DNA of 64,000 bases, from the NCBI GenBank assembly GCA_017557435.1, contig JAFYYR010000015.1, positions 25,397 to 89,396 on the forward strand. Direction: 5' to 3'. This document shows positions 7,401 through 23,444 of the stretch, in pieces. Positions within the stretch are counted from its first letter, which is position 1; each line of letters begins with the position of its first letter. Below the pieces are notes generated by a model. The model did not search any database. It worked only from the letters and a program-made list of their open reading frames with translations, and was not told the DNA's origin. This DNA is from Pseudobutyrivibrio sp. (GTDB taxonomy: Bacteria > Bacillota > Clostridia > Lachnospirales > Lachnospiraceae). A program made the position numbers and the translations under genes.

Positions 7401-9453
7401 ATCTTGAAAGAGATGCGCTGTCAGAAGCTGCTGCGCTCTCTGATAATGACTGGCTGCGTGACTCAGAAGTCTGTGCTGATGCAGATGCACTCTCTGAAAT
7501 AGACTCACTTCTTGACTGAGATGCCTGGTTTGATGCAGATGCACTTTCAGACATTGACTCACTTCTAGAAGCTGATGAGCTCTCAGATGCCTTAGCACTC
7601 TCGCTGATTGACTCTGTCCATGAATCAGACTCAGAAGAAACCTCTGATACTGTCTCACTTACTGACTCAGAAACTGAAGTGAACTCACTTCTCTCATGAG
7701 CGTAATCATCTTTTCCCTTATCAAAATCATTGATTGAGAAGTATGTATATCCCTTTACTCCAAAGTTACCGTCTTTTGCCTGACCAGCATTATTGAAGTA
7801 TGTATCTGTGCTTTCCTTAGCCTTTGCTATAAAGCTATCCTTAAAATTAACGCTGTAGCTTGTTGAACTAGCTGATGTATATAATGTAACAGTCTGAGTC
7901 CAATTGCTAGCACCGTGGTCATCTATAGTGGCTGTAAATGTATATGTGCCATTTCCATTATTTACGATTCTAGAATTTCTATAGAAATAAGTCTTACCAC
8001 CAATCTTGATTCTCTGGTTATTGTAAGAAACTGTATTTCCATTGCCATCTGTAAGTGTTGAATATGTTCCAACACCCTGAGAATTAGAAACAACTACACC
8101 AAGTGTATTGTCTGCAGAGTTTCTGCAAACACCTGATAGCTGTCCATTCCATACATTATCTGCAGATGAATAGCTACCTAAATCATGATAGATAACCTGA
8201 CCATCTTCAGAATAATAAATATTTGACCATGGATTGTTATTCTGAGCTACAACATTTTTTGTAGTTCCGTTATATGAATTCCAAGAAAGAGTAAATGAAT
8301 CATCTTCCTGGATTGTAACCTTTACATCGTCAGCTACACGCTGTCCGTTTACATAGTAACGACATACTGTTGACTCAGTACCATCAGCAGCTGTCTCTGT
8401 TTCATAATTCCATGTGAGAATATTGCCATTAGCATCTTTGTACTGGTTTGTCTTCTTAACAACCATGATTCCAGATACTACATTTGCATTATCATGCTCT
8501 CTACCCTGAGCTGGGCTATCATAGAATCCAGGAACTAATGCATTTCCTGCTTTATCTATTGTTACATAATCAAAGTAAGCGTACTTTGTCTCGCCTGCTG
8601 CATCAACATATGTAACCTTTACGCCGTTAGTATTGTAGTTGCTGAAATCCCAATCACTATAAAGGATTTCGCCAACATAACCTTCCTGATAGAAAGAATA
8701 CTGAATAAGAAGGTTAGCAAGCTTATCGCCGTAACCATAGTAATTATTTGATCTATCGTCATGGTTAAGATACTGACCATTTCTGATAGCTCTCTGCTGT
8801 ACTGCCTCAAGCTCTGCTCTTGCTTCCTCGATTTCCTTAATAAGGTTCTCAAGATAATCATCCTCTCCAGCTTCTGAGAATGAAGTTGAAGCTGAATCAT
8901 ATGAAGACTCTGCATCAGACATAGCTTCTGAAAGGCTCTCGCTCTCAGAACTGATTCTCTCAGATACTGACTCAGATGTGCTAGCAATTGACTCATTTTC
9001 TGATGTTAATGATTCGGCTGCTGAATTTGATGTCGAAGAAATCTGTGATTCCTCTGTAGAAAAAGAAGTGCTAGCTGCTTCAGATTGAGCTGCTACTTCT
9101 GAAGAAACATCATCCCCCATTGTTCCTTGCGCTTCTACGTCTGCCCCCTCGGCATTTACCGCTGTCGCCTGAGCAGTTAAGTCAACCTCTTCAAGCTCTG
9201 TTGTGGTCTCCTCCACCACAGTCTCTTGGGTTGTCTCTTCCTGAACGCTCTCGACAGTAGTCTCGACAACTTCCCTTGCCTGCTCTTGGGTAACCTCTAC
9301 TGTGATAACCCCTCCAGCATTGGCGGCTGCTTGCTCTTCTCCAAGCTCGGCAGCATATGCTAAATTAGCGTCACCGAATACAGATGCACCACCAACTGTT
9401 GCGCCTGTAATGGCAACTCCTTTTAATAAATTTTCAACTTTTTTCTTTGACAT
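4480..9453 (-). CDS. Giant serine-rich repeat surface adhesin
   Basis: 1657 residues. The N-terminal signal peptide has a glycine motif ([16 protein letters not shown]), typical of accessory-Sec substrates. A short acidic/Ser region follows, then a folded binding region (about residues 205-600). The first part of that region is related to the neighbouring adhesin, with shared landmarks such as NNYYGYG/SNYYENYA and YFDYVT/YYDYVT. A very long SASTSASES-type region (about residues 610-1530) is punctuated by three copies of a conserved RISELESQ segment. The C-terminus has no LPxTG; it carries [11 protein letters not shown] followed by a single hydrophobic segment, [12 protein letters not shown], and a Lys-rich tail. 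Family knowledge: the Ser-rich stalk is glycosylated and exported by SecA2/SecY2. The ligand is unknown. Confidence 0.88.
4885..7690 (-). repeat. Serine-rich repeat coding region
   Basis: About 2.8 kb encoding alternating Ser-Ala-Ser-Thr/Glu units. Within it a conserved segment of about 40 codons (IRESES...[13 protein letters not shown]) recurs at roughly 5456-5579, 6098-6220 and 6632-6752. The low-complexity codons also open long frames on the other strand that I do not regard as genes. Confidence 0.9.
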
Positions 9454-9706: not shown

Positions 9707-10945
9707 TCAATAGGTTTCACAAAGGTAGCCATGCACTGTAAATCTCCTCCCCGATGTTGAACAAGTAGAAAGTGTGGTTACCTTATCTTTAGAAGATAGT
9801 TCCTTTCCTATTTCAATATCATCATACGAATGCTTAAGTAACTCACTGATATAATCACCAAACTCATCTGAATCTGAATAAGGCACGCCGTATACCCATG
9901 AGGCTGCATCCGTATCAAAATATGAGAATATCTCATATCTATACTTTTTATCCGCTGTTATAATCTGAAAATACTTATGATCCTGCAGATAGTTATCTTC
10001 TGTCTTATAGAACTTCAAGCTGCCAAACATTGAAAGATTTCTCATGTTGTGGCCATATATCACATTATGACTGTCTGCGAAATTAGGAAGGTTATATCCT
10101 TCCAGGAAAATACTACCTGCTGTAGCCCTGTCTCCGTCCATAGTCATACGTAAGTATTTATCATCATCACCTGAGTATAATATAGGATAGCTTATATCTG
10201 TTCCTTCAACGTATAGCCAACCTATTACATCAGGATTGATAGCCTGAAGCTTCGAAACATCGACATCCATCATATCATACCATTGCTGATTAGTCTCGGA
10301 TATTTTTACATATTTTTCATTTAAATTGTTATATAAGCTATTGGACTTCTGATAACCCATATAAATAAATAGGAAACCAGCCAATGAACCAAACACAATT
10401 ACAAGTCCTGTAAACAAGATAATCTTAGGATTAACCCCTGATTTCTTTTTCTTATCAGATTCATCTGCTGCCTTTTTATTTTTGGACTTATCGCCAGCGC
10501 TTGAAAGAATTGCACCAACTAGTACCATAACAATAGCCACTATCTTGCCTATAGGCTCTGATATAAATGAAGCTACATTTCCCATTAAAGGAAAATATTT
10601 CTCTGTCCTTCCTAATACATTGGTATAGGCCACAGGACTGAAATCAGCAGTTTCATTGGCGTCACCCTTTGTGGTAATAAGCATCTGCTCCTTATCAATA
10701 GACTCAACCCTATGGGTAACCACACTGGCTCCTGACTCAAATGAAATAATATCCCCTTCTGAAATCTCAGAGAAATCCACTGGCTTAACATAAACTATGG
10801 ACCCAACCGGAATAGTCGGCTCCATTGAACCAGATATGACATTGTAGCTCTGGTATCCTATCAATTTAGGAAACACTATAGGCACAAATGCCACAATCAC
10901 AATTATTATTAATATGGTCCCTATTGTTCTTAATATTTTCTCCAT
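9707..10945 (-). CDS. SipW-type signal peptidase I fused to class B sortase
   Basis: One 412-residue polypeptide carrying two enzymes. Residues 1-150 are an ER/SipW-type signal peptidase: TM helix, nucleophile in SGSMEP (Ser40), VTHRV (His78), KGDANE (Asp95) and a second TM (about 133-147). After a Lys-rich linker and a third TM (about 174-197), residues 200-412 are a class B sortase: NPDVIGWLYVEGTDISYPI, YGHNM (His299), TLSTCS (Cys395) and Arg401. All catalytic residues of both halves are visible. I chose the ATG at 10945; an ATG ten codons upstream lies inside the preceding terminator. The neighbours encode SipW-type signal peptides and an NPLTG sorting signal, so the fusion probably matures and anchors its own cluster's proteins. 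Substrate assignment is inferred. Confidence 0.88.
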   Translation of the reverse strand: MEKILRTIGTILIIIVIVAFVPIVFPKLIGYQSYNVISGSMEPTIPVGSIVYVKPVDFSEISEGDIISFESGASVVTHRVESIDKEQMLITTKGDANETADFSPVAYTNVLGRTEKYFPLMGNVASFISEPIGKIVAIVMVLVGAILSSAGDKSKNKKAADESDKKKKSGVNPKIILFTGLVIVFGSLAGFLFIYMGYQKSNSLYNNLNEKYVKISETNQQWYDMMDVDVSKLQAINPDVIGWLYVEGTDISYPILYSGDDDKYLRMTMDGDRATAGSIFLEGYNLPNFADSHNVIYGHNMRNLSMFGSLKFYKTEDNYLQDHKYFQIITADKKYRYEIFSYFDTDAASWVYGVPYSDSDEFGDYISELLKHSYDDIEIGKELSSKDKVTTLSTCSTSGRRFTVHGYLCETY

Positions 10946-10951
10946 AGGCCA

Positions 10952-10960
10952 ATTATAGCA
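10952..10960 (-). promoter_or_regulatory. Extended -10 promoter giving a possibly leaderless transcript
   Basis: TGCTATAAT on the minus strand (10952-10960) is a perfect extended -10. Six bases separate it from the A of the ATG at 10945, so initiation 7 nt downstream would start at the start codon itself. No ribosome site is visible before that ATG. Confidence 0.5.
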
Positions 10961-10961
10961 C

Positions 10962-10990
10962 AAAAAAGCGCCCAACCGAAGTTGAGCGCC
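10962..10990 (-). terminator. Terminator of the pilus/TasA-like operon
   Basis: On the minus strand GCGCTCAAC and GTTGGGCGC form a 9-base-pair stem (one G-T pair) around a TTCG loop, followed by TTTTTTG. It lies 13 bp after the stop at 11003 and separates the operon from the signal peptidase-sortase fusion gene. Confidence 0.85.
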
Positions 10991-11002: not shown

Positions 11003-12106
11003 TTATTCTTTTGTATCCTTTTTCTCTTCTACCTTGGCAATAACAGCTTTGCGCTTGTTGTGTGCAACAAGGAGTGCAATAAGGATTATAACTATTGCAA
11101 CTATTGCAATCATAATTCCAATAATCATATTGCGTTTGAAATTATCTTTTGCAGTCTCGCCGTGCTTTGCTGTATCTGGGTCGTCGATATCGATTACATC
11201 GAGAGGTGTCTGCTCATCTTCAATTGTAGTAGTCTGATCAGCATCTCCACCGTCACCATTGTCCTCACCTGCATCTGCGTCAGCATCATCGCCACCTGCA
11301 TTTGCACCGCCGTTACCACCGGCTGGACGTGTGTTTCTTCCACCATCTACTGTTCTAGTGCCACGGTTTACATACTGATACTCGTAAACTGGCTCTCCAT
11401 AGACTGTGTCTGACACGTAAGTTGTCTCATCAATATGATTAACTTTTCCATTGTACTTAGTGTACTGGAATGTGAATACTGTATTCTCTTTAAGTCCTTC
11501 TGATGCTGTGCGATATAAAGCATCTGGATAATAATTATCAAGATGTCTTGCTGGAACTAAAATAATCTCGCCTAAAGTACCCCAGTAAACATCATCTGGA
11601 GCAAGTGCATTGCCATCAGCATCCACATATTTAACTGTGTAAGGAATTGTAGAGCCTACACCGTAAGCTACAACATAGTCCTCGTCACCCTTTACTGTGC
11701 TATTAAAATTCACAGCTCTATTACCAGCTGCATCCTGTGTAGCCTGAGTAACGATTGTATCTCCACCAGAAACTCTAAGACCACTAATATAATACTTAGT
11801 ATTTCCAGTTTTCGCATTAGGACTAACCTTAATTAATTTATCTACAGAAACATCTATTTCATCTCCGTAGTTAAATCCAGAAATAGTGACCACGTCATCA
11901 TTAACTGATACTTGCTCATCACCATATTTTGCCTTAAGGGAAGCCACGCCATCATCAATAAATGAAGCATCTTCATTGTTACCGATGCGGATATTCACTC
12001 TGTATGTATAGCTTTCAGCCTTTGCAATGTCAGGATTAAGATTTGCAAGAGTAAGCACAAAAACAAATGTAAGGATTAGGCCCAATAATCTCTTAGCTTT
12101 TTTCAT
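11003..12106 (-). CDS. Membrane-anchored surface protein (MucBP-like region)
   Basis: 367 residues. There is a Sec signal peptide (to about residue 31, ending IAKAES), then beta-rich extracellular domains. The segment YTVKYVDADGNALAPD is typical of MucBP-like or Listeria-type repeats. A Gly/Asn/Asp-rich linker and TTIEDEQTPLD come before one TM helix (about 320-345) and a Lys-rich tail. No LPxTG is present. It is the last gene of the operon, immediately after the NPLTG gene (TAG stop next to its ATG, ribosome site GGAGGTGG), so the two are translationally coupled. Function is unknown. It could be a basal or anchoring subunit of the fibres encoded upstream. Confidence 0.7.
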   Translation of the reverse strand: MKKAKRLLGLILTFVFVLTLANLNPDIAKAESYTYRVNIRIGNNEDASFIDDGVASLKAKYGDEQVSVNDDVVTISGFNYGDEIDVSVDKLIKVSPNAKTGNTKYYISGLRVSGGDTIVTQATQDAAGNRAVNFNSTVKGDEDYVVAYGVGSTIPYTVKYVDADGNALAPDDVYWGTLGEIILVPARHLDNYYPDALYRTASEGLKENTVFTFQYTKYNGKVNHIDETTYVSDTVYGEPVYEYQYVNRGTRTVDGGRNTRPAGGNGGANAGGDDADADAGEDNGDGGDADQTTTIEDEQTPLDVIDIDDPDTAKHGETAKDNFKRNMIIGIMIAIVAIVIILIALLVAHNKRKAVIAKVEEKKDTKE

Positions 12107-12922
12107 CTAGGCCACCTCCTCTTCTTTCCTGTCTCTTGTAATGATGAAATACCATAAAATCATCAAAAGACCTGCAAAAAGAGCTATTGCACATAAAACA
12201 AGTGGGAAAAGTGAATCGCCAGTAAGTGGATTGCCGCCATCAAGAGGAATAGAATCATCCTCGATAACAACCACTTCTGTACCACCATCAAGAGTATTAA
12301 CTACTCTCTTTACCACTGTATTATGCTGTTCTTCAGTATCACCTTCTCTAGCTGAATCTGTTGGCTCTGCGCCAAATTTAATCTCAAGCTGAGCAAGTGT
12401 AGACATATAGTTGTTAGTCTGTGAATTACCATCAAGAGTAACTGTAACTGTCACATTTCCTGATTCACCAACTCCAACAGAACCAAGGGAAAAATATGAA
12501 CCCTCATTTCCATTTACCTGATTAAGACCTACAACGGCTGTAGCGTTCTCATCACCACCGATTGTCTCGCTGTCGAAAAGTGGCTGGTCGCTTCCAGAAT
12601 ATGTAATCTTGTATGTATAAGATCCACCTGTTGCTTTAGAGCCCTCTTCCAAAGTCTTAACAACATCAGCGCTCATGTAGAATGTAGCATCTGACTTAGA
12701 TTCATTTATATAATTTACAGTGTACTCAATTGTGTCGCCAGGCATTGTGTCAGAAATAACTGCCTTTGCTGGGTCATAATTTGATTTCATTGAAGAGCCA
12801 GTGTAAGTAACATCCCAAGGCTCTATTTTAAGTGTTTCAGCATGTGCTGTTGTTCCTGCAAAAGCGAAGCCTGCGGTCATCACCATGAGAGCAAGAACTA
12901 TATTCAAATGTAACTTTTTCAT
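12107..12922 (-). CDS. Surface protein with NPLTG class B-like sorting signal
   Basis: 271 residues. A signal peptide (to about 28, THAE) is followed by a beta-sandwich-like region resembling DUF11/TasA-type proteins (GDTIEYTVNYINESKSDATF, GVGESGNVTVTVTL). Near the C-terminus VVIEDDSIPLDGG leads into NPLTGD, a hydrophobic helix and a charged tail (RDRKEEE). NPLTG departs from LPxTG and matches the general NPxTx pattern of class B sortase substrates. The only class B sortase in the window is the fusion protein encoded two genes downstream, so I infer it is the cognate enzyme. It sits between TasA-like genes and a TM-anchored gene in the same operon. Confidence 0.75.
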   Translation of the reverse strand: MKKLHLNIVLALMVMTAGFAFAGTTAHAETLKIEPWDVTYTGSSMKSNYDPAKAVISDTMPGDTIEYTVNYINESKSDATFYMSADVVKTLEEGSKATGGSYTYKITYSGSDQPLFDSETIGGDENATAVVGLNQVNGNEGSYFSLGSVGVGESGNVTVTVTLDGNSQTNNYMSTLAQLEIKFGAEPTDSAREGDTEEQHNTVVKRVVNTLDGGTEVVVIEDDSIPLDGGNPLTGDSLFPLVLCAIALFAGLLMILWYFIITRDRKEEEVA

Positions 12923-12935
12923 TATTCTCTCCTAA

Positions 12936-13736
12936 TTAGTTAACTGCTGCTTCATTTATTGAAGTAATAACACCATTATCATCAACTTCTGCATGAACAC
13001 CCCATGCTCCAAGTATTGCCTCTTTAGCATTGTGTGTCTGAACTGCATCTACTCTGATTTCCACATAAAATGTCTTTCCATTGTACTGGTACTCGTCCAC
13101 AACAACACCAGTCTTATCACCATCAACTGTCTTAACATAAGTAAGAACTTCATTGTCGATTGTGATTGATTTGATAAGGTCATGGGACTCACCATAAGCA
13201 AGTGGCTTAGCTAAGTAATATACAGCTCCTTCACCTGCTTTTTCTGCCTCTGTCTTCTCGTCATCATCCTTATTAGATGTTTCTTCATACCAGCCAGAAG
13301 CAATTTCAAGATCAATAAGCTTTGGATCAAGAATTGTATTCTTGCCATTATCATCCTTCCAGCTCTTTCTGACGTATACTCTAACGTACTCGTCATAGCC
13401 GCCTTCAGATGTATTTACCACTCTAACATTCTCAGCATAAGTCTTACCTACTGTGAAAGGAAGGTCATTGGACTTATCTGCATCATTAGTCTTCATTGCC
13501 TCAGCTATAGATGGAAATGTAAGTGAATCAGCCTCACCATCGCCATTATTAACCACTACATAATCATCACCCTGAAGCTCCTGAAGCTGTACCTCAAGCT
13601 GGGCTGTTGTAAAATCAACCTGCTCCGCTCTGCTTGAGTAAGTAATTGCCGCTCTTGTTGCTCCCACTGAACTACCTGCAACTACAAGCACTCCAACTGC
13701 AAGTATTACAAGAGGATTCTTTACTATCTTTTTCAT
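12936..13736 (-). CDS. TasA/CalY-like protein with SipW-type signal peptide
   Basis: 266 residues. The N-terminus (LVILAVGVLVVAGSSVGA, then TRAAITYSS) matches the SipW-cognate signal peptide class seen before TasA/camelysin-like proteins in clostridia. The mature part contains PFTVGKTYAENVRVVN and EYVRVYVRKSW, the usual beta-strand pattern of this family, in which added domains form extracellular fibres. There is no anchor. It overlaps the preceding gene by one base (TAATG). Its likely processing enzyme is the SipW-type half of the fusion protein at 9707-10945. Fibre formation is inferred from the family. Confidence 0.78.
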   Translation of the reverse strand: MKKIVKNPLVILAVGVLVVAGSSVGATRAAITYSSRAEQVDFTTAQLEVQLQELQGDDYVVVNNGDGEADSLTFPSIAEAMKTNDADKSNDLPFTVGKTYAENVRVVNTSEGGYDEYVRVYVRKSWKDDNGKNTILDPKLIDLEIASGWYEETSNKDDDEKTEAEKAGEGAVYYLAKPLAYGESHDLIKSITIDNEVLTYVKTVDGDKTGVVVDEYQYNGKTFYVEIRVDAVQTHNAKEAILGAWGVHAEVDDNGVITSINEAAVN

Positions 13737-14314
13737 TAGTTCTCACCCTCCTCTTGATTTGTAGTTGTCTCTGTGCCTTCTGTCTCGTTACTTGTTGATT
13801 CAGAGAACTTAGCATCATAGTCGCTGCGACTCATAACTGTCTTAGTCCAATCAACTGACACATTGCCATCAGCATCATAAATAGCAAGTGATGCTTCCTG
13901 AACAATTACTACGTTAAAGCTCTCTTCAACAGCTGTGTTGTCCTTAACCGAAATCTTAAGCTGTAATTCTGGTGCAGTCTCATGAGCCTTAACTACATCC
14001 TTGTAATAGTAGTAGCCATCTTCCTTAAGCTCCCAGCCAGCTGATGTATTAACAGCAACTTCTGCATTATAATTGCTACCGTATACAGCCTTAACTCTGA
14101 TAAACACATCATAATTACCTGTGTTCTCAACCGTAATATGCTTAACCAAACCATCAACAGTCTCATGTGGAGTAAGTCTTGAATCTCCAAGAGAAAGTAT
14201 TACACCACCAGTTGCCTGCTTAGTGTCTGTAAAATATGCCATTGTAGTTTTTACTGACGCCAAACTCACAAGTGCTAGAGCTGCGGCAATCATAAAATAC
14301 TTTTTAAACTTCAT
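13736..14314 (-). CDS. TasA/CalY-like protein with SipW-type signal peptide (short)
   Basis: 192 residues. The signal region ends MAYFTDTKQATG, the classic SipW-dependent signature in which AYFTD follows the hydrophobic core. The body has KHITVENTGNYDVFIRVKAV and a long Glu/Thr-rich tail (ESTSNETEGTETTTN) without any anchor. It begins 3 nt after the stop of the pilin-like gene and shares one base with the next gene, so all are in one operon. Because it is shorter than its neighbour, it may be a minor or initiating subunit, as in TapA/TasA pairs. That is speculative. Confidence 0.78.
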   Translation of the reverse strand: MKFKKYFMIAAALALVSLASVKTTMAYFTDTKQATGGVILSLGDSRLTPHETVDGLVKHITVENTGNYDVFIRVKAVYGSNYNAEVAVNTSAGWELKEDGYYYYKDVVKAHETAPELQLKISVKDNTAVEESFNVVIVQEASLAIYDADGNVSVDWTKTVMSRSDYDAKFSESTSNETEGTETTTNQEEGEN

Positions 14315-14317
14315 ACT

Positions 14318-15388
14318 TTAATTGCCTCCCTCTAAATTGTTTCCTGTGTAGTTATAATTTACAGTAGCAAGTCCATCAACTGTAGTCTCAACTTTTTCAA
14401 ATGTATTTACTACGCTAATTCCACCTTCTTTAAGATGCTCATCATAATCATTTGTAAATTCTACAGTACCTGTCTCTCCAGCCTTTAAATCCTCAATTGT
14501 CTGAGTCTTATTCTCCTCTACATCGATAGTGTAGCTGGCACCTGAATAAACCTCTGTAACAGTGATTGTTGTTCCTGCTGGAACCTTGTCAATAGTAATC
14601 GACTTTGTAAAAGCTCCATCTACATAATTGTCATTTTTATCAAATGTAAGTGTGTAGACGTTGCTAAAAACTGTCTTTTCATCTCTTGTTGCCTCAACAT
14701 CATATATGAAGCTTGCTGTTCCAAGAGAATCATTGAAAGTCTTTAAATTCTTAGTAATAGTAACCTTGCCATATTTAGGCTTAGCTTCTGATTTAAGTAA
14801 AAAGCTTGCATCATACTTCCACTCATCACTGCCAGAACCAAGTGTTATATAGTCACTTGTTGGGGCATATAAAATGTATGATGTAAATGTATAGTTAAAA
14901 TCATTGTCAGAACAATCCTGTGGAACAAAAAGGTAAATACCTGCGCCATTTGCTATAGTAGCTGTAGCATTTGTAAGGCCATCCTTTGTCTTAGTAGCTT
15001 TAATTGTATCAGTAGGCTTAACTGCATCTGATTGTGCAACTGGCTTTACCTTTTCTACTATCTTAGTTTTAACTTCCTCTTCAGAAGTCTTATTTGTTAA
15101 AACTGAAAGGTCTGCGCCACTGTTTGCAAAGTCAGCAGTCAATCCCTTGATATTGCCGCTTTCATCAAGCTCTGCGATTTTATATAAATCAATGACTATC
15201 TCGCCCTCAAAGCTTGTGGCAAACTGAGAATTATCTCCTGCACCAATGGCAGCAGATATATGAACATCTGCAGTCAAATCAATATGACCAGCAGCATTTA
15301 CTCGATAGGCTCCAAACGAAGACGCAAGTGTAACTACTGTCGCAGCGATCGCTATAAGTTTTTTTCTACTAAACCCTAAATTTTTCAC
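14318..15388 (-). CDS. Pilin-like protein lacking a cell-wall anchor
   Basis: 356 residues. A signal peptide ends at about 32 (RVNAAG). The N-terminal domain contains ATATIANGAGIYLFVPQD and resembles pilin N-domains. The second domain (GKVTITKNLKTFNDSLGTASF ... TVTEVYSGASYT ... VEFTNDYD) is the streptococcal-pilin isopeptide-linkage type, with the expected Lys in TITK and Glu in TVTE. The C-terminus stops at NYNYTGNNLEGGN with no sorting motif, no hydrophobic helix and no charged tail. That is unusual for a gene placed directly after two class C sortases. Its start overlaps the preceding sortase stop by 4 bp. It could be a secreted pilus cap or ligand-binding subunit. Confidence 0.75.
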   Translation of the reverse strand: MKNLGFSRKKLIAIAATVVTLASSFGAYRVNAAGHIDLTADVHISAAIGAGDNSQFATSFEGEIVIDLYKIAELDESGNIKGLTADFANSGADLSVLTNKTSEEEVKTKIVEKVKPVAQSDAVKPTDTIKATKTKDGLTNATATIANGAGIYLFVPQDCSDNDFNYTFTSYILYAPTSDYITLGSGSDEWKYDASFLLKSEAKPKYGKVTITKNLKTFNDSLGTASFIYDVEATRDEKTVFSNVYTLTFDKNDNYVDGAFTKSITIDKVPAGTTITVTEVYSGASYTIDVEENKTQTIEDLKAGETGTVEFTNDYDEHLKEGGISVVNTFEKVETTVDGLATVNYNYTGNNLEGGN

Positions 15389-16287
15389 TGAGCTCTCCCT
15401 TCAGCTTTCTTATTACTCTTTTTGAATAACTTTCGAATTATAAGAATAAGAATAATTGCAACGATTAAACCAGCTATGCCGATAATCACGTAATAATTCT
15501 TAACAGTTTCTACAACAGCCTCGGCACCCTTTGGAGGTTCATCCTCTCCTAAGTATTCAACTCTTGTGCCTCTAACTAAAAGTCTGTGGGTGTTAACACC
15601 ATATGGTGTACATGTAAACAAAGTAACGTAATCTTTGCCAGGCTCCACTTTCATTGCTTCAGCAAGAGTATTAATATCCTCTGCTGGTATTGCCTCCGAA
15701 ATCTCGTCTACCTGATAGGCAAGTGTTTCATCTAAAACATGGATGTAAAACTTGTCTCCAACCTGAAGCTGGTCAATATTTGTAAATAGCTCTGCACTAG
15801 GCAAGCCTCTATGACCAACTATTACTGAATGTGTACTCTCGCCTCCAATTGGAAGTGCTGTACCATTCATATGTCCAACTGCCGTCTGGATGTACTCATC
15901 AAAAGTACCATGCATAATGGACAACTTAACTTTTATTTTTGGAATGGACAAATAGCCCATAACTCCATCGCCATTAATATTTAAAACTGAAAAGTACTCT
16001 GAATTCAAAAACTCTTCAGTTGGTTTAACTGCATTTCCATCAGCAGCTGCTCCAAATGCATCTGTGCCAATGGCGTTTTCAGTAATATTTGCATTAAATG
16101 CCCTAGCAGCATCCCAGTAAGCGGAATAATCTTCCTCAGTCATCTGGCTGAGAGAATCCTCATACTCACGGATAACAGTGCTCTGCACATAATTGTTCCA
16201 TTCGTTTGAAATGGTTGGATAAGCTAAAAATCCCACGCCAACGATGAATAATAAAATTACAAAAAACCTAACTAATTTCTGTTTCAC
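15385..16287 (-). CDS. srtC: Class C (pilus-type) sortase
   Basis: 300 residues. There is an N-terminal TM helix (about 7-25) and a long lid-containing region. The catalytic motifs are VGHRGLPSA (His), TLFTCTPYG (Cys) and RLLVRG (Arg), followed by a C-terminal TM helix and a basic tail. That two-TM topology and the HRGLPSA/TPYG signature mark class C sortases, which join pilin subunits through isopeptide bonds. It overlaps the neighbouring sortase gene by 4 bp (ATGA). Because two class C enzymes follow the major pilin, they probably split polymerisation of the LPFTG backbone and incorporation of the LPETG adhesin. Confidence 0.92.
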   Translation of the reverse strand: MKQKLVRFFVILLFIVGVGFLAYPTISNEWNNYVQSTVIREYEDSLSQMTEEDYSAYWDAARAFNANITENAIGTDAFGAAADGNAVKPTEEFLNSEYFSVLNINGDGVMGYLSIPKIKVKLSIMHGTFDEYIQTAVGHMNGTALPIGGESTHSVIVGHRGLPSAELFTNIDQLQVGDKFYIHVLDETLAYQVDEISEAIPAEDINTLAEAMKVEPGKDYVTLFTCTPYGVNTHRLLVRGTRVEYLGEDEPPKGAEAVVETVKNYYVIIGIAGLIVAIILILIIRKLFKKSNKKAEGRAQ

Positions 16288-17159
16288 GCCTGTTCCTTTT
16301 TTGTGCGCTTTCTGTCATATAAGTAAAGTAAAAGAATAAATGCACCTACAATTGCAAGTCCTACAATTACCCATAAAAGATAATTAGTGTGAAGACTTAC
16401 TGCTCCAAAAGTAGGAGTCTTAGCATCTGCAAGAAGTGTTGGTGTATACTCTACTCTGTGACCTGTAACCATAAGTCTCTCAGTATTTACACCGTATGGT
16501 GTACATGTAATAAGAGTACATAGGTCCTTGCCTGGCTGAACTGCAAGTAGGCTAGTATCATCAGGCTCAACCACTTCAATATTATCTACTTCATAAGCAT
16601 AGTACTCGCCCATGATGATAATGAAGAAATCCTCGCCAACCTCCACCTTATCAAGATCTGTAAAAAGTGTGGCACTTGGCAGACCTCTGTGAGCACTAAG
16701 TACTGAATGTGTATCAGGACCTCCTATTGGAAGTGAACTTCCCTCTAGATGTCCTACACCGATTTGAAGCACATCATCATTTGTTGTATGGAAAATAGGA
16801 AGCTTTACATTGATACTAGGTATCTGAATGTATCCCATTATTCCGTCATCATTTGCATTTAAAATGCTCATATAATTGCTATCTACGCCATTGGCCTCCG
16901 CCTCTGCAAAGGAATCTGGCAAGATACTTGGAAGTAATTCCTCGTTGTATACAGTTGCTCTATCAAGCTCAGCTTGTACATCAAGGGTTCCTTCCTGGAT
17001 TGCTGCCTCGACTGTTGCCTCATAATCTTTAACAAGTGTAGCTTGTACGTGATTATTCCATGCGTTGGCAACTAGCGGGTACACCAGCAAGGACAAACCA
17101 GCAAGCATGAGAGCGCCGATGGCTATAGTCTTATAGTATTTTAGAAAAAATGCCTTCAT
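16284..17159 (-). CDS. srtC: Class C (pilus-type) sortase
   Basis: About 291 residues from an ATG at 17159 that has GGAGAGG 8 nt upstream; an in-frame ATG ten codons earlier lacks such a site. Motifs are SAHRGLPSA (His), TLITCTPYG (Cys) and RLMVTG (Arg), with TM helices at both ends and a Lys/Arg tail. It is clearly paralogous to the next sortase. It follows the major pilin gene after a stable hairpin that may reduce sortase expression relative to pilin. Confidence 0.92.
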   Translation of the reverse strand: MKAFFLKYYKTIAIGALMLAGLSLLVYPLVANAWNNHVQATLVKDYEATVEAAIQEGTLDVQAELDRATVYNEELLPSILPDSFAEAEANGVDSNYMSILNANDDGIMGYIQIPSINVKLPIFHTTNDDVLQIGVGHLEGSSLPIGGPDTHSVLSAHRGLPSATLFTDLDKVEVGEDFFIIIMGEYYAYEVDNIEVVEPDDTSLLAVQPGKDLCTLITCTPYGVNTERLMVTGHRVEYTPTLLADAKTPTFGAVSLHTNYLLWVIVGLAIVGAFILLLYLYDRKRTKKEQA

Positions 17160-17187
17160 TATTGCTGTCCTCTCCTTGGTGCTGTAC

Positions 17188-17209
17188 ACCCTGGCATAGA
17201 CGCCAGGGT
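17188..17209 (-). other. Intercistronic hairpin between major pilin and sortase genes
   Basis: ACCCTGGC (17188-17195) and GCCAGGGT (17202-17209) form a perfect 8-bp stem with a 6-nt loop. No T-run follows, so it may be an mRNA processing or stability element that sets pilin above sortase expression. Confidence 0.5.
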
Positions 17210-17260: not shown

Positions 17261-18703
17261 TTACTTAGAAGCCTTCTTCTTTGTTGCAAAGAAAAGTGCT
17301 GCTGCGATAGCCATGATAGCTACACCGAGTACTGTAAAGATTGTTGTACCCATACCACCAGTGAATGGAAGCTGTACAAGCTTAGAATCGATGAACTGTG
17401 CCTCACCAACGAACTCCTCGTCTGCTGAAGCCTGATCAAGTGATACTGTGCCGTTGAAAGCTGCTTCCTTAATCTGTGGGTTGATTGTCCATGTCTCTGG
17501 AGCCTTTGTCTCCTTGAAGAAGTATGTGTTCATAACAAGCTTTCCATCTACTTCGTCAGCTACATCAAAACCAAATGCAGAAGCTGTTGCCTTACCATTA
17601 GCATCCTTTGCTGTAACGATAGGAGTAGCCTTTGTCTCATCATCTGTCCAACCTGTAAGCTTGTTGTTTGAATCAAGTACAGCATACTCATACTTGTCTT
17701 CGCCAACCTTCTTGAGGATGATGAACTCAGCGCCCTCAAGTGGATTCTCTTCGTCATCTAACTTCTCTACTACAAGCTTTCCTGTGTAAGAATATACTCT
17801 TGTTGTATCGAAATCATCACCTGGCTGATGACTTGGTGTAATTGTGTAAGCATCGTTGTAAATCTTTACATCTAAAGCGATAGCCTTGTATGTAAATGTG
17901 ATTACTTCGTTTGCATGAGCGTTACCTTCAACAAGGTAGTTAAGGTCTAACTCAAATCCGTTGTCAACAACGTCTACTGACTTAACCTCTGTTGTATCGC
18001 CATAAGCAACTGTGATATCAAGCTTGCCATCAGCATTTACTGAATATGCACCACCTGTGATGTGATCAACAAGTGCAAACTTCTTTGTAACGATTTCATT
18101 AGCCTTTACATATGGAATTGTTGTCTCAACTGTGTATGTGATTTCCTTTTCATCAACTGTTGAAGCATACTTGTCATCCTCAGTCTTCTTTACCTTCTTT
18201 GGCTCACTCTTAGCTGAAAGAGACTCTGTAGACTTAGCAACATAGTTACCATTAGCATCCTTTACTACAGTTACAGCAACCATAGCGTTGAACTCAAGAT
18301 CTCCATCAAAGTTAGCAACCTTGAAGAAGTAAGCACCAGCCTTAAGGCCTGAGAATGTAGCAACACCATTTGTGATTGTTGCAGAAGCATCAACTTTAGT
18401 ATCAGCCTTGAATGCTGCAGCTAAAGCCTTAGCATCTTCTGGTGTCATCTCGATTGGCTGAGTATCATCATTTGTAGGAACTGCCTTGTAAGCATCCTTT
18501 GCCCAGTCAACTACCTGAATTGCATTGTTCTCGTCTACAGAAGCAATCTGATATGCGTTTACAGTATAACCATTAGCTACTGTAGGAAAATTGTTAATTG
18601 TAAGTGTTGTTGTGTTGTTCTCTGCGGCAAAAGCAGTAATGCTCATTGCCATCATCATTACTGTCGCAAGCGCAAGAGCAACGATTTTTCTGATTTTTTT
18701 CAT
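17261..18703 (-). CDS. Major pilin, fimbrial isopeptide D2 domain, LPFTG
   Basis: 480 residues. A signal peptide ends AFAAEN (about residue 27). An N-terminal domain with GAYFFKVANFDG is followed by a D2-type fimbrial domain (VETTIPYVKANE ... KFALVDHIT) and a C-terminal Cna-B/SpaA-like domain (GKLVVEKLDDEENPLEGAEF). That last domain contains the E-box-like YFFKETKAPE. The anchor is LPFTGG, a hydrophobic helix and KKKASK. The Lys in the YVK segment is a candidate pilin-motif lysine. It lies 16 bp downstream of the large adhesin gene and upstream of two class C sortases, the standard order for a sortase-assembled pilus. Confidence 0.93.
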   Translation of the reverse strand: MKKIRKIVALALATVMMMAMSITAFAAENNTTTLTINNFPTVANGYTVNAYQIASVDENNAIQVVDWAKDAYKAVPTNDDTQPIEMTPEDAKALAAAFKADTKVDASATITNGVATFSGLKAGAYFFKVANFDGDLEFNAMVAVTVVKDANGNYVAKSTESLSAKSEPKKVKKTEDDKYASTVDEKEITYTVETTIPYVKANEIVTKKFALVDHITGGAYSVNADGKLDITVAYGDTTEVKSVDVVDNGFELDLNYLVEGNAHANEVITFTYKAIALDVKIYNDAYTITPSHQPGDDFDTTRVYSYTGKLVVEKLDDEENPLEGAEFIILKKVGEDKYEYAVLDSNNKLTGWTDDETKATPIVTAKDANGKATASAFGFDVADEVDGKLVMNTYFFKETKAPETWTINPQIKEAAFNGTVSLDQASADEEFVGEAQFIDSKLVQLPFTGGMGTTIFTVLGVAIMAIAAALFFATKKKASK

Positions 18704-18719: not shown

Positions 18720-21700
18720 TTATTTGTTGTTTTTATTGTTTTTCTTTGATTTATATAACAACAGCGCCGCCCCCATCATTAACAGAACTCCGCCGATTGT
18801 ATATACATAGACTCCCCTTCCACCTGTCTCAGGTAGAGTATAAGCAACAACATCGAAGAAACTATATTCATATGTTGCGATGTTGCCTGCTTTGCTTACG
18901 GTAGCATGTACTACCTTGTTTGAAGACTTAATCCTTACAGATACGCCCTCATATTTTTCATATGTGACAATCCACTCTTCTTTGCTAAGTGCAAAGCTCT
19001 TTGGTGCCTTTGTCTCTCTGAGGATGTATGTGCCATCCTGAACTGTCTGAGGCTTTGAATGCTCAGAATCTGGATTTTCAACTTCCCAGAGACTATTAAA
19101 CCAAAGGATTTCTCCCTGACTATTTGTTACACCGTAGAATACAGTGAATGTATCATCAGCATTTCTTAACTCAAACTGTGCTCCAGCAAGAGTTTCGTAT
19201 GTATTAGCATTTCTCTTTACAATCTTAAATTCATAAGACTGCTTAAGCTCATTTACAACCTTTACTTGGCTGTCCTTTCCACTCTCTACATTAACTGATG
19301 TAGTTCTTTCTATAAGAGAAAGTGCTTGCTCAGCTCCATCTACAACCTGATACATTGTAGTTTCGTATCTTTCTAAGTCAGCCTTCTCGTATTCACCATT
19401 TGCATTCTTGTCGTAAACATAGCACTCTGTAACTCTATATTCGCCTGGAAGCAAATCGGTGATTGTAAATGACTGGTCAGCAAAAATATTAAATGCATCA
19501 TTGCTGTAGCCTACTCCAAGCAGTTTATTTCCGTTGTAGTAAGAAATAATATTGGTCTGAATCACTCCAATTGTAATTGGACTAACAACTTCTGTTGTAC
19601 CATCCTCAAGAACTCGCTCTACCTTGATTCCATACATGGTATCTGTAGAAGCATTTGTTGAATTACCAGTGAGTTTCTTTTCAATTGTAAGAGAACCCTT
19701 TACATTCTTGTTTGTAAATGTATGTGTCTCATTACCAAGCTTTTCAACAGAAACCTGAGCAATTGTCTTTGGTGAAAGAATAAAATCAAGTCCTGTTCTG
19801 TCATAACCGTAATTGCTTGAATAGAAGTTACCCTTTGAATTACTAATTGTGACTGGGCACTCAACCTTTGCTGTTGTGAAAAGATTTGCACCGCTTAAAT
19901 CAACATAACCATTTCTAGGATTGTAAGTTCCTGTATAGTACATAGCCACGTTTCTATATGGCTCGTGTTCGCCGCCTACCTTTTCGCTTGATGGCTTGTA
20001 GTATCTAGAATCCTGTGGATAGTATGAATTGCTGTCGATAATAACAAGCTTTGTATCGCTTGAGCCCTCATACTTAACCTTGAATGCTAAAACTGAATTC
20101 TGGCCTAGCTTCTGAGAATCAGCTCTCCACTCGTAGCCGTTCTGCTTAGTCATCTGAACACTCTTTGAATCAGCAACCCATCTGTAGCTGTCATCATAGT
20201 ATCCGATGAGTGTTATTCGACCGCTATTTCCATCTAAATCGTAGATGTTAGTGATTCTTCTACCAGAATCATCGCCATCTGAAACAGCATCTACTTCAAT
20301 ATCTAAGTGGCTGTACTGCTCTCCACCCTCAGTAGCAGGTGAAGGAATTAAAATTTCTTCTGTAATGTTAGTATTTTCTGTATAAGTAACATCGTGATCT
20401 GTTAACTCATATCCAATAATTTCTCGCTCTTCAACATTCCAGCTGATAATCTGTGTACAATCCTCATCAGCGAAAATCTTCAGATTCTCAATTGTGCGAG
20501 TCCAATTATCATCCTTTGTTACTACTACAGGAGTAATTGCAGCTTCTTTGCTATCACAGACTGTTCCATCAAGTTTGATGTACTTTACACCAGAATCATC
20601 TGCAAATGTACCGTATACATCGAATGTGATGTTGTCTGGTCTGCTAGTTGAATTATTGTCATCCCATTCCTTTTTGATTGTAAGGTTCTTCTTGTATGAC
20701 TCATTCTTGAAGTTCTTGATTGTAGTAATTTCTTTTTTATTCTGGTCATCCTTCTTGTAAATCTTGAATGAACCCTGTGTCTTTGATTTAACAGCTCCAT
20801 CTATTATAGAAGAAGTACCATTTACAACCTCTACAACGTAGATAGTCTTGCTTACTCGATAACCCTTTGGAGCTACCATCTCTTTCATATAGTAGGTACC
20901 AGCCTCTACATCAGAGAATGTAACCTTACCATTTGCATCAGATGTAGCTGTGTAAAGAGCTGTGCCCTTGCACTCTGTATCAGCCTCACCGTAGAGACCA
21001 AACTCTGCGCCTGCTAAAGCACGTCCAGCTCCGTCAGCCTTGTTGAAATATACATCTGTAGGAACTGCTATATTCTGATTTTTAAAGTTAAATGTAATCT
21101 TGCAGTTTGATAAGGAAGCACCACGCTCAAGGTAGAAGAATGTAAGTGTATGTCCACCCTTAGCCAAAGCCTTGCGTCCTTCTTCAACTGTCTTGTAACC
21201 TAAAACATTTGTATAAAGGTTTGTTGTGCTCCGTGAGCCTCTGTTAACTACAGATCTAGCTGCAGAATCAACAATACAATCACCTGTTGCAAAATTGATT
21301 CGTCCTGATACAACGCCGTGGATACCACCAATATCAAGAGCTAACTTGTTATCAATGAATACCCATACATCATCATCACCAGAGAATTCAAAGACTGTAT
21401 CTTTTCCATTGTCATCCTTGCCATTTTCAGCGATGTTGAAGTTAACCTGTAAATTCATACCGAAATGTGGCTCATCCTTAGTACCAGAGAATGGCCAGAA
21501 CTGACCTTCACTATCATTTCTCTGAGTACGAGTCATTCGGTTATTTGGCTCATCAAATGAGTAATCGTTTACCTTAGAATCAAATGTGTAATATCCATTT
21601 TCAAAATAGAAAGGAATAGCTACATTTCTGTATGCTAAAATATCATCTTTTCTATCCCAATATGTATTAGCTCCAGTTCTAGATGCGAAAAGCCAAGAAT

Positions 21701-23444
21701 CTGGATCAAAAATAGGTGCTACAGCATAGTTAAATGTAGGCATGTTGTTAGATAATGTATTGCCTACGATACCCTGGTATGCTGTTGGATTATCTGTAGA
21801 TGAATTAGTATTACATCTGTTCCATGGCTGGTAGTATGCTGAACCATTTGTGATAATATCTCCACCATCATGGAAAATTAATGCATTGTTAGCATTTCCT
21901 GTTCTAAGAGATGCATTGTTAATTGAATCCTTGCTATAGTTGAAAAGATTAGCTGAGAAATACTTGTCATCAGCAATCTCTCTATTATCTTGGTATACAA
22001 AGAAAACATTTACAGTTGTTCTCTTGGCTGCTTCACTAGAACTATTTGCACCCTCTGCAATATACTGCCAGTTATTCTCACCCTGTCCATAAATAGTAGC
22101 TGCCCAGTACAATCGACCTGGGTCATATTTATAACTTATATTTGTAACCTGACGCTTATCTGCAAGATATGCACCTCTATATGTATATCCCTCTACAGAA
22201 AGTTGTCTGGCAAGTGTTGTAAAGTAATTGTAGTTAGTTGCCGATACACGACATGACAAATTTTCATTTGCTGGAATGTTGTCGTAAGTTTCAATCTGAC
22301 CAGTTACACTCTCAATTGGGTTACCATACTGGTCAACTGCATAAAGATTAAGTGTCTGAGTATTTTTCGCGTGATTATTATCTTTCCATATGATGGTTCC
22401 TACTTTTTTATCTGTGCTAACAGTTGTCCACTTAATGGCAAAAACTGAGAAGCTCTCTGTCTCAAATGAAACATCTACTGTAGAAATATCATCACCAGTC
22501 TCCACTGATGTGGTAGACTCCTCTGTCAAATCAACAGCCTCTGTAGAATCACTATTTTCCTCGAAGTGAACGATACCTACATCTGTACCTTCAAGCTCCT
22601 CATCTGTCTCAGGTGCCTTTAAGCTTACGATGTTAACTGAAACGCTTCCATCCTTTGGCTCTACTTTGCCATCCTCATTCATAAGAGAAATATCATAAGC
22701 CAAAAATGCTTTAAGCTCCTTGCCAGATTCTTCAGCATCCTCAGAAAGTGAAGTAGCTACCTCTTCCAACTGGTCCTCATCAGTTACTTTTTCGGCCTTA
22801 ACTTCTGTGGCACCATTAAGTACGCTCTTCTTTGCTGTGACAGTGACAATGACCTCATCGTTTTCGAACTCAAGAGTTATTTCCTTGTCCTCATCTTCGA
22901 TTTCCTCTTTTTTGTATCCACAATGAATACAGATTCCATCTTCATCGAACTCACACTCTTCAGCTTCTTCGATGATTTCGCCGCATTCCTTGCAGCGCTT
23001 GATATGAGTTCCATCACCATTTGACTCGTACTCGAATTTCTCGTGCTTGCATTTCTTTTCATCCTCAAGCTCCTCATCTTCAAGCTCATCGTCTTCAGCC
23101 TCCTCATCAGTAGCCTCAGCCTCATCGGCTACTGACTCGTCCTCTGACCCATTATTAATTTGTTCCTCCTGGGAATCATTTGATGTAGCATCTCCATCAT
23201 GATTATCAGAAGTTGCATCACCAGAAACGGATGCGTCCTCCTCGGAGCTGCTAGTGGCATCATCTTCTGCTCTCCCTGCTTCAGAAGATGAGACCTCTTC
23301 AGAATTATCATTAACTGAGTACTCAGCAGCAACGACTTCGTTATCACCCTCCGCATAGGCTACTATCGGTGACGATAAAGCGAGCGCTGTTGCAAGTCCC
23401 AAAGACAGTATTCTATTAAGCATAGTCAACTTTTTCATAGACAT
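18720..23444 (-). CDS. Large pilus-associated adhesin with fibro-slime and SpaA domains, LPETG
   Basis: 1574 residues from the ATG at 23444 (GGGAG 5 nt upstream). After the signal peptide comes a highly acidic linker (about 35-130). A Cys-rich segment follows (about 130-185) with paired CxxCG motifs (CKECGE, CIHCGY). Residues about 520-830 form a fibro-slime domain containing FSGDDDVWVFIDNKLALD, a family likely involved in carbohydrate contact. Several Cna-B/SpaA modules follow (GRALAGAEFGLYG ... YYMKEMVAPKGY; LAGAQFEL ... YILRETKAPK). The anchor is LPETGG, a hydrophobic helix and KSKKNNK. It is the first gene of the pilus operon and the probable tip or shaft adhesin. The ligand is unknown. 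Confidence 0.9.
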   Translation of the reverse strand: MSMKKLTMLNRILSLGLATALALSSPIVAYAEGDNEVVAAEYSVNDNSEEVSSSEAGRAEDDATSSSEEDASVSGDATSDNHDGDATSNDSQEEQINNGSEDESVADEAEATDEEAEDDELEDEELEDEKKCKHEKFEYESNGDGTHIKRCKECGEIIEEAEECEFDEDGICIHCGYKKEEIEDEDKEITLEFENDEVIVTVTAKKSVLNGATEVKAEKVTDEDQLEEVATSLSEDAEESGKELKAFLAYDISLMNEDGKVEPKDGSVSVNIVSLKAPETDEELEGTDVGIVHFEENSDSTEAVDLTEESTTSVETGDDISTVDVSFETESFSVFAIKWTTVSTDKKVGTIIWKDNNHAKNTQTLNLYAVDQYGNPIESVTGQIETYDNIPANENLSCRVSATNYNYFTTLARQLSVEGYTYRGAYLADKRQVTNISYKYDPGRLYWAATIYGQGENNWQYIAEGANSSSEAAKRTTVNVFFVYQDNREIADDKYFSANLFNYSKDSINNASLRTGNANNALIFHDGGDIITNGSAYYQPWNRCNTNSSTDNPTAYQGIVGNTLSNNMPTFNYAVAPIFDPDSWLFASRTGANTYWDRKDDILAYRNVAIPFYFENGYYTFDSKVNDYSFDEPNNRMTRTQRNDSEGQFWPFSGTKDEPHFGMNLQVNFNIAENGKDDNGKDTVFEFSGDDDVWVFIDNKLALDIGGIHGVVSGRINFATGDCIVDSAARSVVNRGSRSTTNLYTNVLGYKTVEEGRKALAKGGHTLTFFYLERGASLSNCKITFNFKNQNIAVPTDVYFNKADGAGRALAGAEFGLYGEADTECKGTALYTATSDANGKVTFSDVEAGTYYMKEMVAPKGYRVSKTIYVVEVVNGTSSIIDGAVKSKTQGSFKIYKKDDQNKKEITTIKNFKNESYKKNLTIKKEWDDNNSTSRPDNITFDVYGTFADDSGVKYIKLDGTVCDSKEAAITPVVVTKDDNWTRTIENLKIFADEDCTQIISWNVEEREIIGYELTDHDVTYTENTNITEEILIPSPATEGGEQYSHLDIEVDAVSDGDDSGRRITNIYDLDGNSGRITLIGYYDDSYRWVADSKSVQMTKQNGYEWRADSQKLGQNSVLAFKVKYEGSSDTKLVIIDSNSYYPQDSRYYKPSSEKVGGEHEPYRNVAMYYTGTYNPRNGYVDLSGANLFTTAKVECPVTISNSKGNFYSSNYGYDRTGLDFILSPKTIAQVSVEKLGNETHTFTNKNVKGSLTIEKKLTGNSTNASTDTMYGIKVERVLEDGTTEVVSPITIGVIQTNIISYYNGNKLLGVGYSNDAFNIFADQSFTITDLLPGEYRVTECYVYDKNANGEYEKADLERYETTMYQVVDGAEQALSLIERTTSVNVESGKDSQVKVVNELKQSYEFKIVKRNANTYETLAGAQFELRNADDTFTVFYGVTNSQGEILWFNSLWEVENPDSEHSKPQTVQDGTYILRETKAPKSFALSKEEWIVTYEKYEGVSVRIKSSNKVVHATVSKAGNIATYEYSFFDVVAYTLPETGGRGVYVYTIGGVLLMMGAALLLYKSKKNNKNNK

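What the first reader, a model, noticed from the sequence alone, without database searches (positions are those of the whole stretch)
9707..10945. Signal peptidase and sortase fused in one polypeptide
Seen directly: SGSMEP, VTHRV and KGDANE of a SipW-type signal peptidase, then a linker and TM, then NPDVIGWLYVEGTDISYPI, YGHNM and TLSTC of a class B sortase in one uninterrupted frame. Both active sites look complete. Family knowledge: these two reactions happen one after the other on exported surface proteins but are normally separate enzymes. Inference: a processive enzyme that cleaves the signal peptide and then transpeptidates the same or co-secreted substrates.
Basis: partly seen in the sequence, partly recalled or inferred. 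Interest (0 to 1): 0.82.

Follow-up and report, generated by a model that had tools for sequence, protein, structure and literature searches.

The report
Signal peptidase fused to a sortase
Bacteria of the genus Pseudobutyrivibrio carry one membrane protein that joins two enzymes usually made separately, one that trims exported proteins and one that bolts proteins to the cell wall, at the end of a gene cluster for surface fibres; similar joins seem to have arisen more than once among their relatives.

Summary
Window 9707-10945 (minus strand) is one 412-aa frame: a SipW/ER-type signal peptidase (Ser40, His78), a Lys-rich linker, a hydrophobic segment and a class B sortase (His299, Cys395, Arg401). 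It is no sequencing error: 25 of 28 other same-genus genomes have both halves in one open frame, and both halves are under purifying selection in the pairs tested. Trees of each half reject a single origin of the fusions. Five genomes of other genera keep sipW and srtB as neighbouring genes, G418 at the end of the same operon. Neighbours include a subunit with SipW-type signal (13736-14314) and a different protein with an NPxTG sorting signal (12107-12922), the only one in sorting context among 18 pattern matches in the genome. Genome G018 has the halves as separate genes in two paralogous operons. I favour a two-headed enzyme serving different subunits of one wall-anchored fibre over a processive enzyme acting on one substrate. 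Ten searches of the held library found no description.

The parts
9707..10945 (-). Signal peptidase-sortase fusion gene, 412 aa
10496..10945 (-). SipW/ER-type signal peptidase half: residues 1-150, hydrophobic segments at about 11-29 and 132-150, Ser40 (10826-10828), His78 (10712-10714), invariant Asp95 (10661-10663) and Asp101
   Evidence: which Asp is catalytic was not determined
10424..10495 (-). Linker, 24 residues, 9 Lys/Arg; 10-30 residues in the 19 aligned rows by hydropathy limits; placed in the cytosol by the positive-inside rule
   Evidence: topology inferred
10367..10423 (-). Third hydrophobic segment, residues 175-193, in the place of the N-terminal anchor of class B sortases
9710..10261 (-). 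Class B sortase catalytic domain, residues 229-412: His299 (10049-10051), Cys395 (9761-9763), Arg401 (9743-9745)
13736..14314 (-). Secreted subunit with SipW-type signal (MAYFTD); TIGR04088 20.0 bits, cut-off 19; BsaA family TIGR04090 29 bits, under its cut-off 60. Likely substrate of the peptidase half
12936..13736 (-). Secreted protein next to it; no NCBIfam match for the window copy, 4 of 22 family members match TIGR04090 at E <= 0.01; possible further substrate of the peptidase half
12107..12922 (-). Secreted protein with C-terminal NPLTGD, hydrophobic segment and charged tail. Likely substrate of the sortase half
11003..12106 (-). Protein with C-terminal hydrophobic segment and a MucBP match below cut-off (19.2, cut-off 23); family upstream of the fusion in 22 of 23 loci
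14318..15388 (-). Secreted protein with DUF5979 domain, no LPXTG seen
15385..16287 (-). Class C sortase (253.7 bits, cut-off 160)
16284..17189 (-). Class C sortase (265 bits, cut-off 160)
17261..18703 (-). Probable major pilin, LPFTG; SpaH/EbpB model NF033902 92.6 bits, just under its cut-off 95; LPXTG anchor over cut-off
18720..23444 (-). Large LPETG surface protein, probable tip pilin (role inferred)
10967..10990 (-). Intrinsic-terminator-like hairpin and T-run between 11003-12106 and the fusion
10952..10960 (-). Extended -10-like TGCTATAAT, 6 nt before the ATG; no Shine-Dalgarno-like match

Best explanation
It is a membrane enzyme with three hydrophobic segments and two heads on the outer face. 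The peptidase head cuts the SipW-type signal of the BsaA-like subunit (13736-14314) and perhaps of its neighbour, releasing the N-terminus for fibre assembly. The sortase head cleaves the NPxTG signal of a different subunit (12107-12922) and links it to the wall, so that this subunit can tether the fibre. Joining the heads keeps release and anchoring at one membrane site in fixed 1:1 amount; the two reactions act on different proteins. Shown: the fused frame, conserved catalytic residues, selection on both halves, operon company, separate placing of the two signals. Inferred: topology, activity, substrate assignment, wall anchoring, fibre formation, advantage of the join.
For: Both curated models over cut-off; active-site residues invariant in 19 of 19 rows and in 9 of 9 rows with the divergent fusions of G020, G285 and G341. 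The peptidase half aligns Ser and His with human SEC11A/C (single sequence E 0.0004-0.014; profile 3e-8 to 4e-7), the sortase half with solved class B sortases including the NPQTN-specific one. Upstream company in 23 fused Pseudobutyrivibrio loci (23 of the 25; G026 was not fetched, G020 is counted apart): sorting-signal protein 22, MucBP-type protein 22, 12936-13736 family 22, SipW-signal protein 20, class C sortase 16. Sorting motif xPxT[GS]D in 21 of 21 readable nearest copies, N first in 17 of 21 (L062 left out because its ORF is merged with the next gene, L060 has no copy). In the own genome (96.2% complete) the DNA pattern hit 18 places (8 for the reversed control pattern), one in sorting-signal context, this protein. 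Same operon order with separate sipW and srtB overlapping by 4 bases in G418.
Against: A second class B-like sortase (L002, 395 aa) is in the genome and could anchor the NPxTG protein. In L060 the fusion stands without the upstream genes. In C. perfringens deleting srtB beside sipW-bsaA had no effect on BsaA polymer or pellicle (PMC7395162, passages). The SipW-signal model finds only 3 of 22 subunit copies at E <= 0.01. No TasA/camelysin Pfam match in the genome, so a TasA-like fibre rests on sub-threshold BsaA similarity. In the divergent loci the sorting protein ends in xxTGD without NP (G020, G065, G341, G418). The G341 locus has a separate SipW gene besides its fusion. Three of 23 loci carry the major pilin but no class C sortase in the stretch fetched (L061, L067, L069), so pilus polymerisation by the fusion is open there.
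Confidence: 0.55

Rival explanations
1. Neutral or merely convenient fusion: sipW and srtB were overlapping neighbours, a stop was lost, and the joined protein does what the two did apart; the join itself has no function.
For: Neighbouring unfused pairs in five genomes of other genera (G065, G083, G254, G418, G729); linker variable in length and letters; halves separated again in G018.
Against: Kept in 25 of 28 other same-genus genomes and seen in further lineages, G341/G449 and G285/G020.
Confidence: 0.22
2. Processive enzyme: cuts the signal peptide and then transpeptidates the same molecule.
For: Both active sites in one chain, on the same membrane face if the inferred topology is right.
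Against: SipW-type motif and sorting signal are on different proteins; the split in G018. The C-terminal sorting signal also emerges last during export (general knowledge, no call).
Confidence: 0.08
3. The peptidase half is a SipA-like substrate-holding part for a class B pilus polymerase, as in group A streptococcal pili, not a working peptidase.
For: In S. pyogenes, SipA-bearing pilus operons use a class B sortase (PMC4049620, passages). The major pilin lies upstream in 19 of 23 loci, class C sortase in 16 of 23.
Against: S. pyogenes SipA has lost its catalytic Ser and Lys, although the same paper says that S. suis and S. agalactiae homologues appear to keep the dyad (PMC4049620, passages). 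Here Ser40, His78, Asp95 and Asp101 are invariant in 19 of 19, and the half is of the Ser-His type.
Confidence: 0.1

Closest known systems
C. perfringens srtB / sipW-bsaABCRSD locus (PMC7395162, passages)
   Same: Putative sortase gene srtB beside a SipW gene and a BsaA-type SipW-dependent fibre protein
   Different: Separate genes, srtB 5' of sipW; no class C pilus genes in the passages seen; srtB deletion without effect on BsaA there
S. pyogenes FCT pilus: SipA plus class B sortase Spy0129 (PMC4049620, passages; PMC3019223, search listing only)
   Same: Signal-peptidase-fold protein and class B sortase in one kind of pilus operon
   Different: Separate proteins; S. pyogenes SipA lacks catalytic Ser and Lys and belongs to the Ser-Lys type
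B. subtilis tapA-sipW-tasA (PMC10151520, passages)
   Same: A dedicated SipW encoded with fibre subunits; sipW deletion disturbs the biofilm
   Different: No sortase in the operon; the genome of the window has no match to the TasA Pfam model
Unfused class B sortases of other genera of the family (for example G343, G729)
   Same: Among the closest relatives of the sortase half in the tree; G729 has sipW next to it
   Different: Not fused; the branch that sets G343 beside the fusions has weak support

Membership tests
Class B sortase | Curated model TIGR03064 over cut-off | tested here: met
   163.9 bits, cut-off 153.75
Class B sortase | Catalytic His, Cys, Arg | tested here: met
   His299, Cys395, Arg401 invariant in 19 of 19 and 9 of 9; that these are the catalytic residues is recalled, His and Cys also align
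Class B sortase | Acts on NPxT-type sorting signals | tested here: inconclusive
   One NPLTGD protein in sorting context in operon and genome; no assay
SipW/ER-type signal peptidase I | Curated model TIGR02228 over cut-off | tested here: met
   92.3 bits, cut-off 51.85
SipW/ER-type signal peptidase I | Ser-His instead of Ser-Lys active site | tested here: met
   Ser40 and His78 align with SEC11A/C, invariant in A1 and A2
Bacillus SipW (NF046067) | Equivalog cut-off 190 bits | tested here: not met
   89.7 bits
BsaA family (TIGR04090), neighbour 13736-14314 | Cut-off 60 bits | tested here: not met
   29 bits; 20 of 22 family members match at E <= 0.01, best 5.4e-8
TasA/camelysin (PF12389), neighbours | Pfam match | tested here: not met
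   No match at E <= 1 in the whole own genome; the control search rang in B. subtilis and three others
SipA pilus protein | Loss of catalytic residues (S. pyogenes SipA) | tested here: not met
   Ser40 and His78 kept in 19 of 19
Fusion as a described family | Report of both domains in one chain | tested here: inconclusive
   None found in 10 searches of the held open-access library; domain-architecture databases and subscription journals not searched

The most novel reading that the evidence does not exclude
The enzyme is a fibre-initiation site: the sortase head holds the NPxTG anchor subunit as acyl-enzyme while the nearby peptidase head releases the N-terminus of the first SipW-type subunit, so that it is captured by the held anchor before wall attachment. 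Release and tethering of a fibre would be coupled in space, and the join would have been selected repeatedly for that.
Probability: 0.13. Interest if true: 0.8.

Novelty: new variant of a known kind. Interest (0 to 1): 0.5.

Why it matters
Signal peptide removal and sortase anchoring are the first and last processing steps of Gram-positive surface proteins. A recurrent fusion of the two would tie SipW-dependent fibre proteins to a sortase and a wall anchor; in the two SipW systems whose passages I saw on this point, sortase was dispensable (C. perfringens) or the assembly is called sortase-independent (B. cereus, PMC13082335). Fused, neighbouring and split versions exist in nature and can be compared directly. 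It also suggests a substrate for class B sortases that sit beside SipW genes in related genera.

Tried and rejected
Sequencing error or frameshift joining two genes: rejected. Single origin of all fusions: rejected by AU tests, p 2e-5 for 28 fused sortase rows, 6e-6 with the separate sortase of G018 added to them and 6e-6 for the peptidase half. In some searches the G018 halves, nested among fused rows, add to the rejection, and several fused rows outside the genus have long branches. On the peptidase tree the supported branches alone force only 2 changes, against 5 on the sortase tree. Whether G285 and G020 are one join or two is not settled: unfused G065 and G418 fall among them and the two trees order them differently. 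G020 is an 83% complete draft labelled same genus, yet its locus is only 36% identical; transfer or contamination was not tested.

TasA membership of the neighbours: not supported by Pfam, NCBIfam cut-offs or PDB sequence searches (Pfam was not run on A5). Structure comparison: not possible, prediction switched off. Plasmid collection: 44 records with a match, none covering 80% of the query. Wider spread: outside the genus one full-length frame (G341) in 392 order genomes at E <= 1e-65, none in 341 class genomes or 348 phylum genomes at E <= 1e-85. These samples overlap, thresholds are strict and mostly at most 4 or 5 candidates per genome were scored, so divergent fusions could be missed. The family sample of 397 (E <= 1e-40) listed full-length open frames in G014, the own genome, G341 and G285, and G065 as neighbouring genes; weaker matches were cut from the listing.

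Steps that misfired: one search read the minus-strand loci in the wrong orientation and was replaced by the references; some searches were cut at the output limit (recounts the loci); the second test did not finish and was repeated; the sortase of G418 was labelled unlinked because its open frame runs upstream of its start codon.

Full report
The sequence. Two curated NCBIfam models pass their cut-offs on one chain, signal peptidase I TIGR02228 (92.3 over 51.85) and class B sortase TIGR03064 (163.9 over 153.75), and so do Pfam Peptidase_S26 and Sortase. The peptidase half aligns with the human signal peptidase subunits SEC11C and SEC11A, SGSMEP on SGSMEP and HRV on HRV, so it is of the Ser-His type; the single-sequence match is weak (E 0.0004 to 0.014), the profile match stronger (3e-8 to 4e-7). 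The sortase half aligns with solved class B sortases. Hydrophobic segments lie at 11-29, 132-150 and 175-193, with a Lys-rich stretch of 24 residues between the last two. By the positive-inside rule both catalytic parts would lie outside the cell; this topology is inferred.

Where it occurs. The window belongs to Pseudobutyrivibrio, by its match to P. xylanivorans MZ8 at 92% identity; that the genus belongs to the Lachnospiraceae is recalled. Among 28 other genomes labelled same genus, 25 have one open frame covering both halves, one of them cut by its contig end (G026) and one only 36% identical (G020); G001 and G007 have none (81 and 86% complete) and G018 has the halves apart. In a sample of 397 family genomes further complete fusions were listed in G285 and G341. 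The second genome of the G341 genus, G449, has it too; the second of the G285 genus, G448 (83% complete), had no match at E <= 1e-50. An order sample of 392 gave full-length frames in this genus and G341 only; a class sample of 341 only in this genus and a phylum sample of 348 only in the own genome. Thresholds differ and are given in Tried and rejected.

Selection. For six pairs of relatives dN/dS is 0.10-0.17 in the peptidase half, and 0.03-0.07 in the sortase half in the four pairs where it could be computed; in the other two, synonymous sites were saturated. The linker is looser, up to 0.68 where computable.

Origin. Neighbouring but separate sipW and srtB genes were found in G065, G083, G254, G418 and G729 among the loci fetched. 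In G418 they overlap by four bases and end an operon in the same order as in the window: LPETG protein, pilin, class C sortase, DUF5979-type protein, SipW-signal protein, its neighbour, sorting-signal protein, MucBP-type protein. A tree of 80 sortase halves needs five changes of state for 'fused', all forced by well-supported branches, and holding the fused rows together is rejected. On the 37-row peptidase tree the best tree also needs five, well-supported branches force only two, and holding the fused rows together is rejected. I read this as separate joins in Pseudobutyrivibrio, in the G341/G449 genus, and in the G285/G020 group, which lies among unfused G065 and G418. Long branches outside the genus are a caution, and more losses could replace some gains.

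The split in G018. Its peptidase-only gene (L078) and sortase-only gene (L077) stand in two paralogous operons and fall inside the fused Pseudobutyrivibrio rows in the two trees, beside different fused relatives (G023 and G015). The upstream gene ends two codons before the sortase-only start, and the next gene after the peptidase-only gene is the serine-rich adhesin. Each operon still has a SipW-signal protein and an NPxTG protein. The simplest reading is that two fused copies each lost the other half. It is a draft of 90 contigs (98% complete, 1% contaminated by the tool's figures), so this wants confirmation.

Substrates. In 23 fused Pseudobutyrivibrio loci (of the 25; G026 was not fetched and the divergent G020 is counted apart) the sorting-signal protein is upstream in 22, the MucBP-type protein in 22, the 12936-13736 family in 22, the SipW-signal protein in 20, the major pilin in 19, class C sortase in 16, and a serine-rich adhesin downstream in 19. 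Of the three loci without the SipW-signal protein two (L057, L076) reach a contig end; L060 has only the fusion and the adhesin. The motif [AS][YFL][FL][ST] lies near the signal peptide end in 22 of 22 aligned copies of the 13736-14314 family and in 0 of 22 of each of the two other families; I chose this pattern after seeing the sequences. The curated SipW-signal model is weaker, 3 of 22 at E <= 0.01, the window copy just over its cut-off. The sorting motif is xPxT[GS]D in 21 of 21 readable nearest copies, with N first in 17; in the divergent loci of G020, G065, G341 and G418 it is xxTGD without NP. In the own assembly the NPxT pattern occurs 18 times, against 8 for the reversed control, and once in front of a hydrophobic segment and charged tail, in this protein; the pattern does not cover NPxTN. 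LPXTG anchors over cut-off are only the two pilins of this operon, but that model misses atypical signals: it misses the NPxTG protein itself, and a protein ending in LAKTG, a hydrophobic segment and KEKRVK lies beside another sortase on contig C21 (L151). Five sortases are in the genome: the fusion, its two class C neighbours, the one on C21 and a second class B-like one (L002). So the NPxTG protein is the best candidate for the sortase half, but L002 cannot be excluded as its partner. The G341 locus has SipW-type proteins just upstream of the fusion and also a separate SipW gene; the G285 contig is too short to tell.

How it most likely works. The peptidase half releases the SipW-type subunit; the sortase half anchors the NPxTG subunit; the join holds both at one site in equal amount. 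Assembly by donated N-terminal strands is described for TasA and TapA (PMC10151520, passages). In C. perfringens SipW is needed for export and polymerisation of BsaA, while srtB next to it was dispensable for BsaA polymer and pellicle (PMC7395162, passages); this fits separate roles and does not test wall anchoring. The processive reading is weakened by the different carriers of the two signals and by G018.

Control of expression. A terminator-like hairpin (10990-10967) separates the MucBP-type gene from the fusion (the scan found 11 such sites in the region, 7.6 expected in shuffles), followed by TGCTATAAT six bases before the ATG without a Shine-Dalgarno-like match. By eye 12 of 27 printed upstream regions have a similar extended -10-like element close to the start, while others follow directly on an upstream gene. 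A leaderless or separately driven message is possible; untested.

Known or new. The two enzyme families are well known and the fusion is a new variant of them. Ten searches of the held open-access library found no description; other databases were not available. The nearest ideas in print that I saw are SipA with the class B sortase of streptococcal pili, where S. pyogenes SipA lacks catalytic residues (PMC4049620, passages), and the srtB-sipW neighbourhood in C. perfringens (PMC7395162, passages).

Noticed in passing
window 10952-10990: Terminator-like hairpin followed by an extended -10-like TGCTATAAT only 6 nt before the ATG, no Shine-Dalgarno-like match; by eye similar in 12 of 27 upstream regions. 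Possible leaderless message.
   Followed up: partly
window 4480-9453: 1657-aa serine-rich repeat protein downstream of the fusion, its family there in 19 of 23 loci, with a C-terminal hydrophobic segment but no LPXTG; before it lies an IED-x(3)-PL stretch shared with the proteins at 11003-12106 and 12107-12922.
   Followed up: partly
window 4826-7519 (+): 897-aa open frame opposite the serine-rich repeats; most likely a by-product of the repeat composition.
   Followed up: no
L062 6369-8234: In G015 the sorting-signal protein and the MucBP-type protein are read as one 621-aa frame; real fusion or assembly slip not decided.
   Followed up: no
L002 883-2070: Second class B-like sortase, 395 aa with a long N-terminal part and one hydrophobic segment; frames of 379-414 aa with such a match are listed in 24 of 28 other same-genus genomes.
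   Followed up: partly
L151 1495-3350: Another sortase of 193 aa beside a protein ending in LAKTG, a hydrophobic segment and a basic tail; a separate small sortase-substrate pair.
   Followed up: no
L077, L078 (G018): Sortase half and peptidase half as separate genes in two paralogous operons, both nested among fused relatives.
   Followed up: yes
L060 (G027): Fusion plus serine-rich protein without any of the upstream fibre genes.
   Followed up: no
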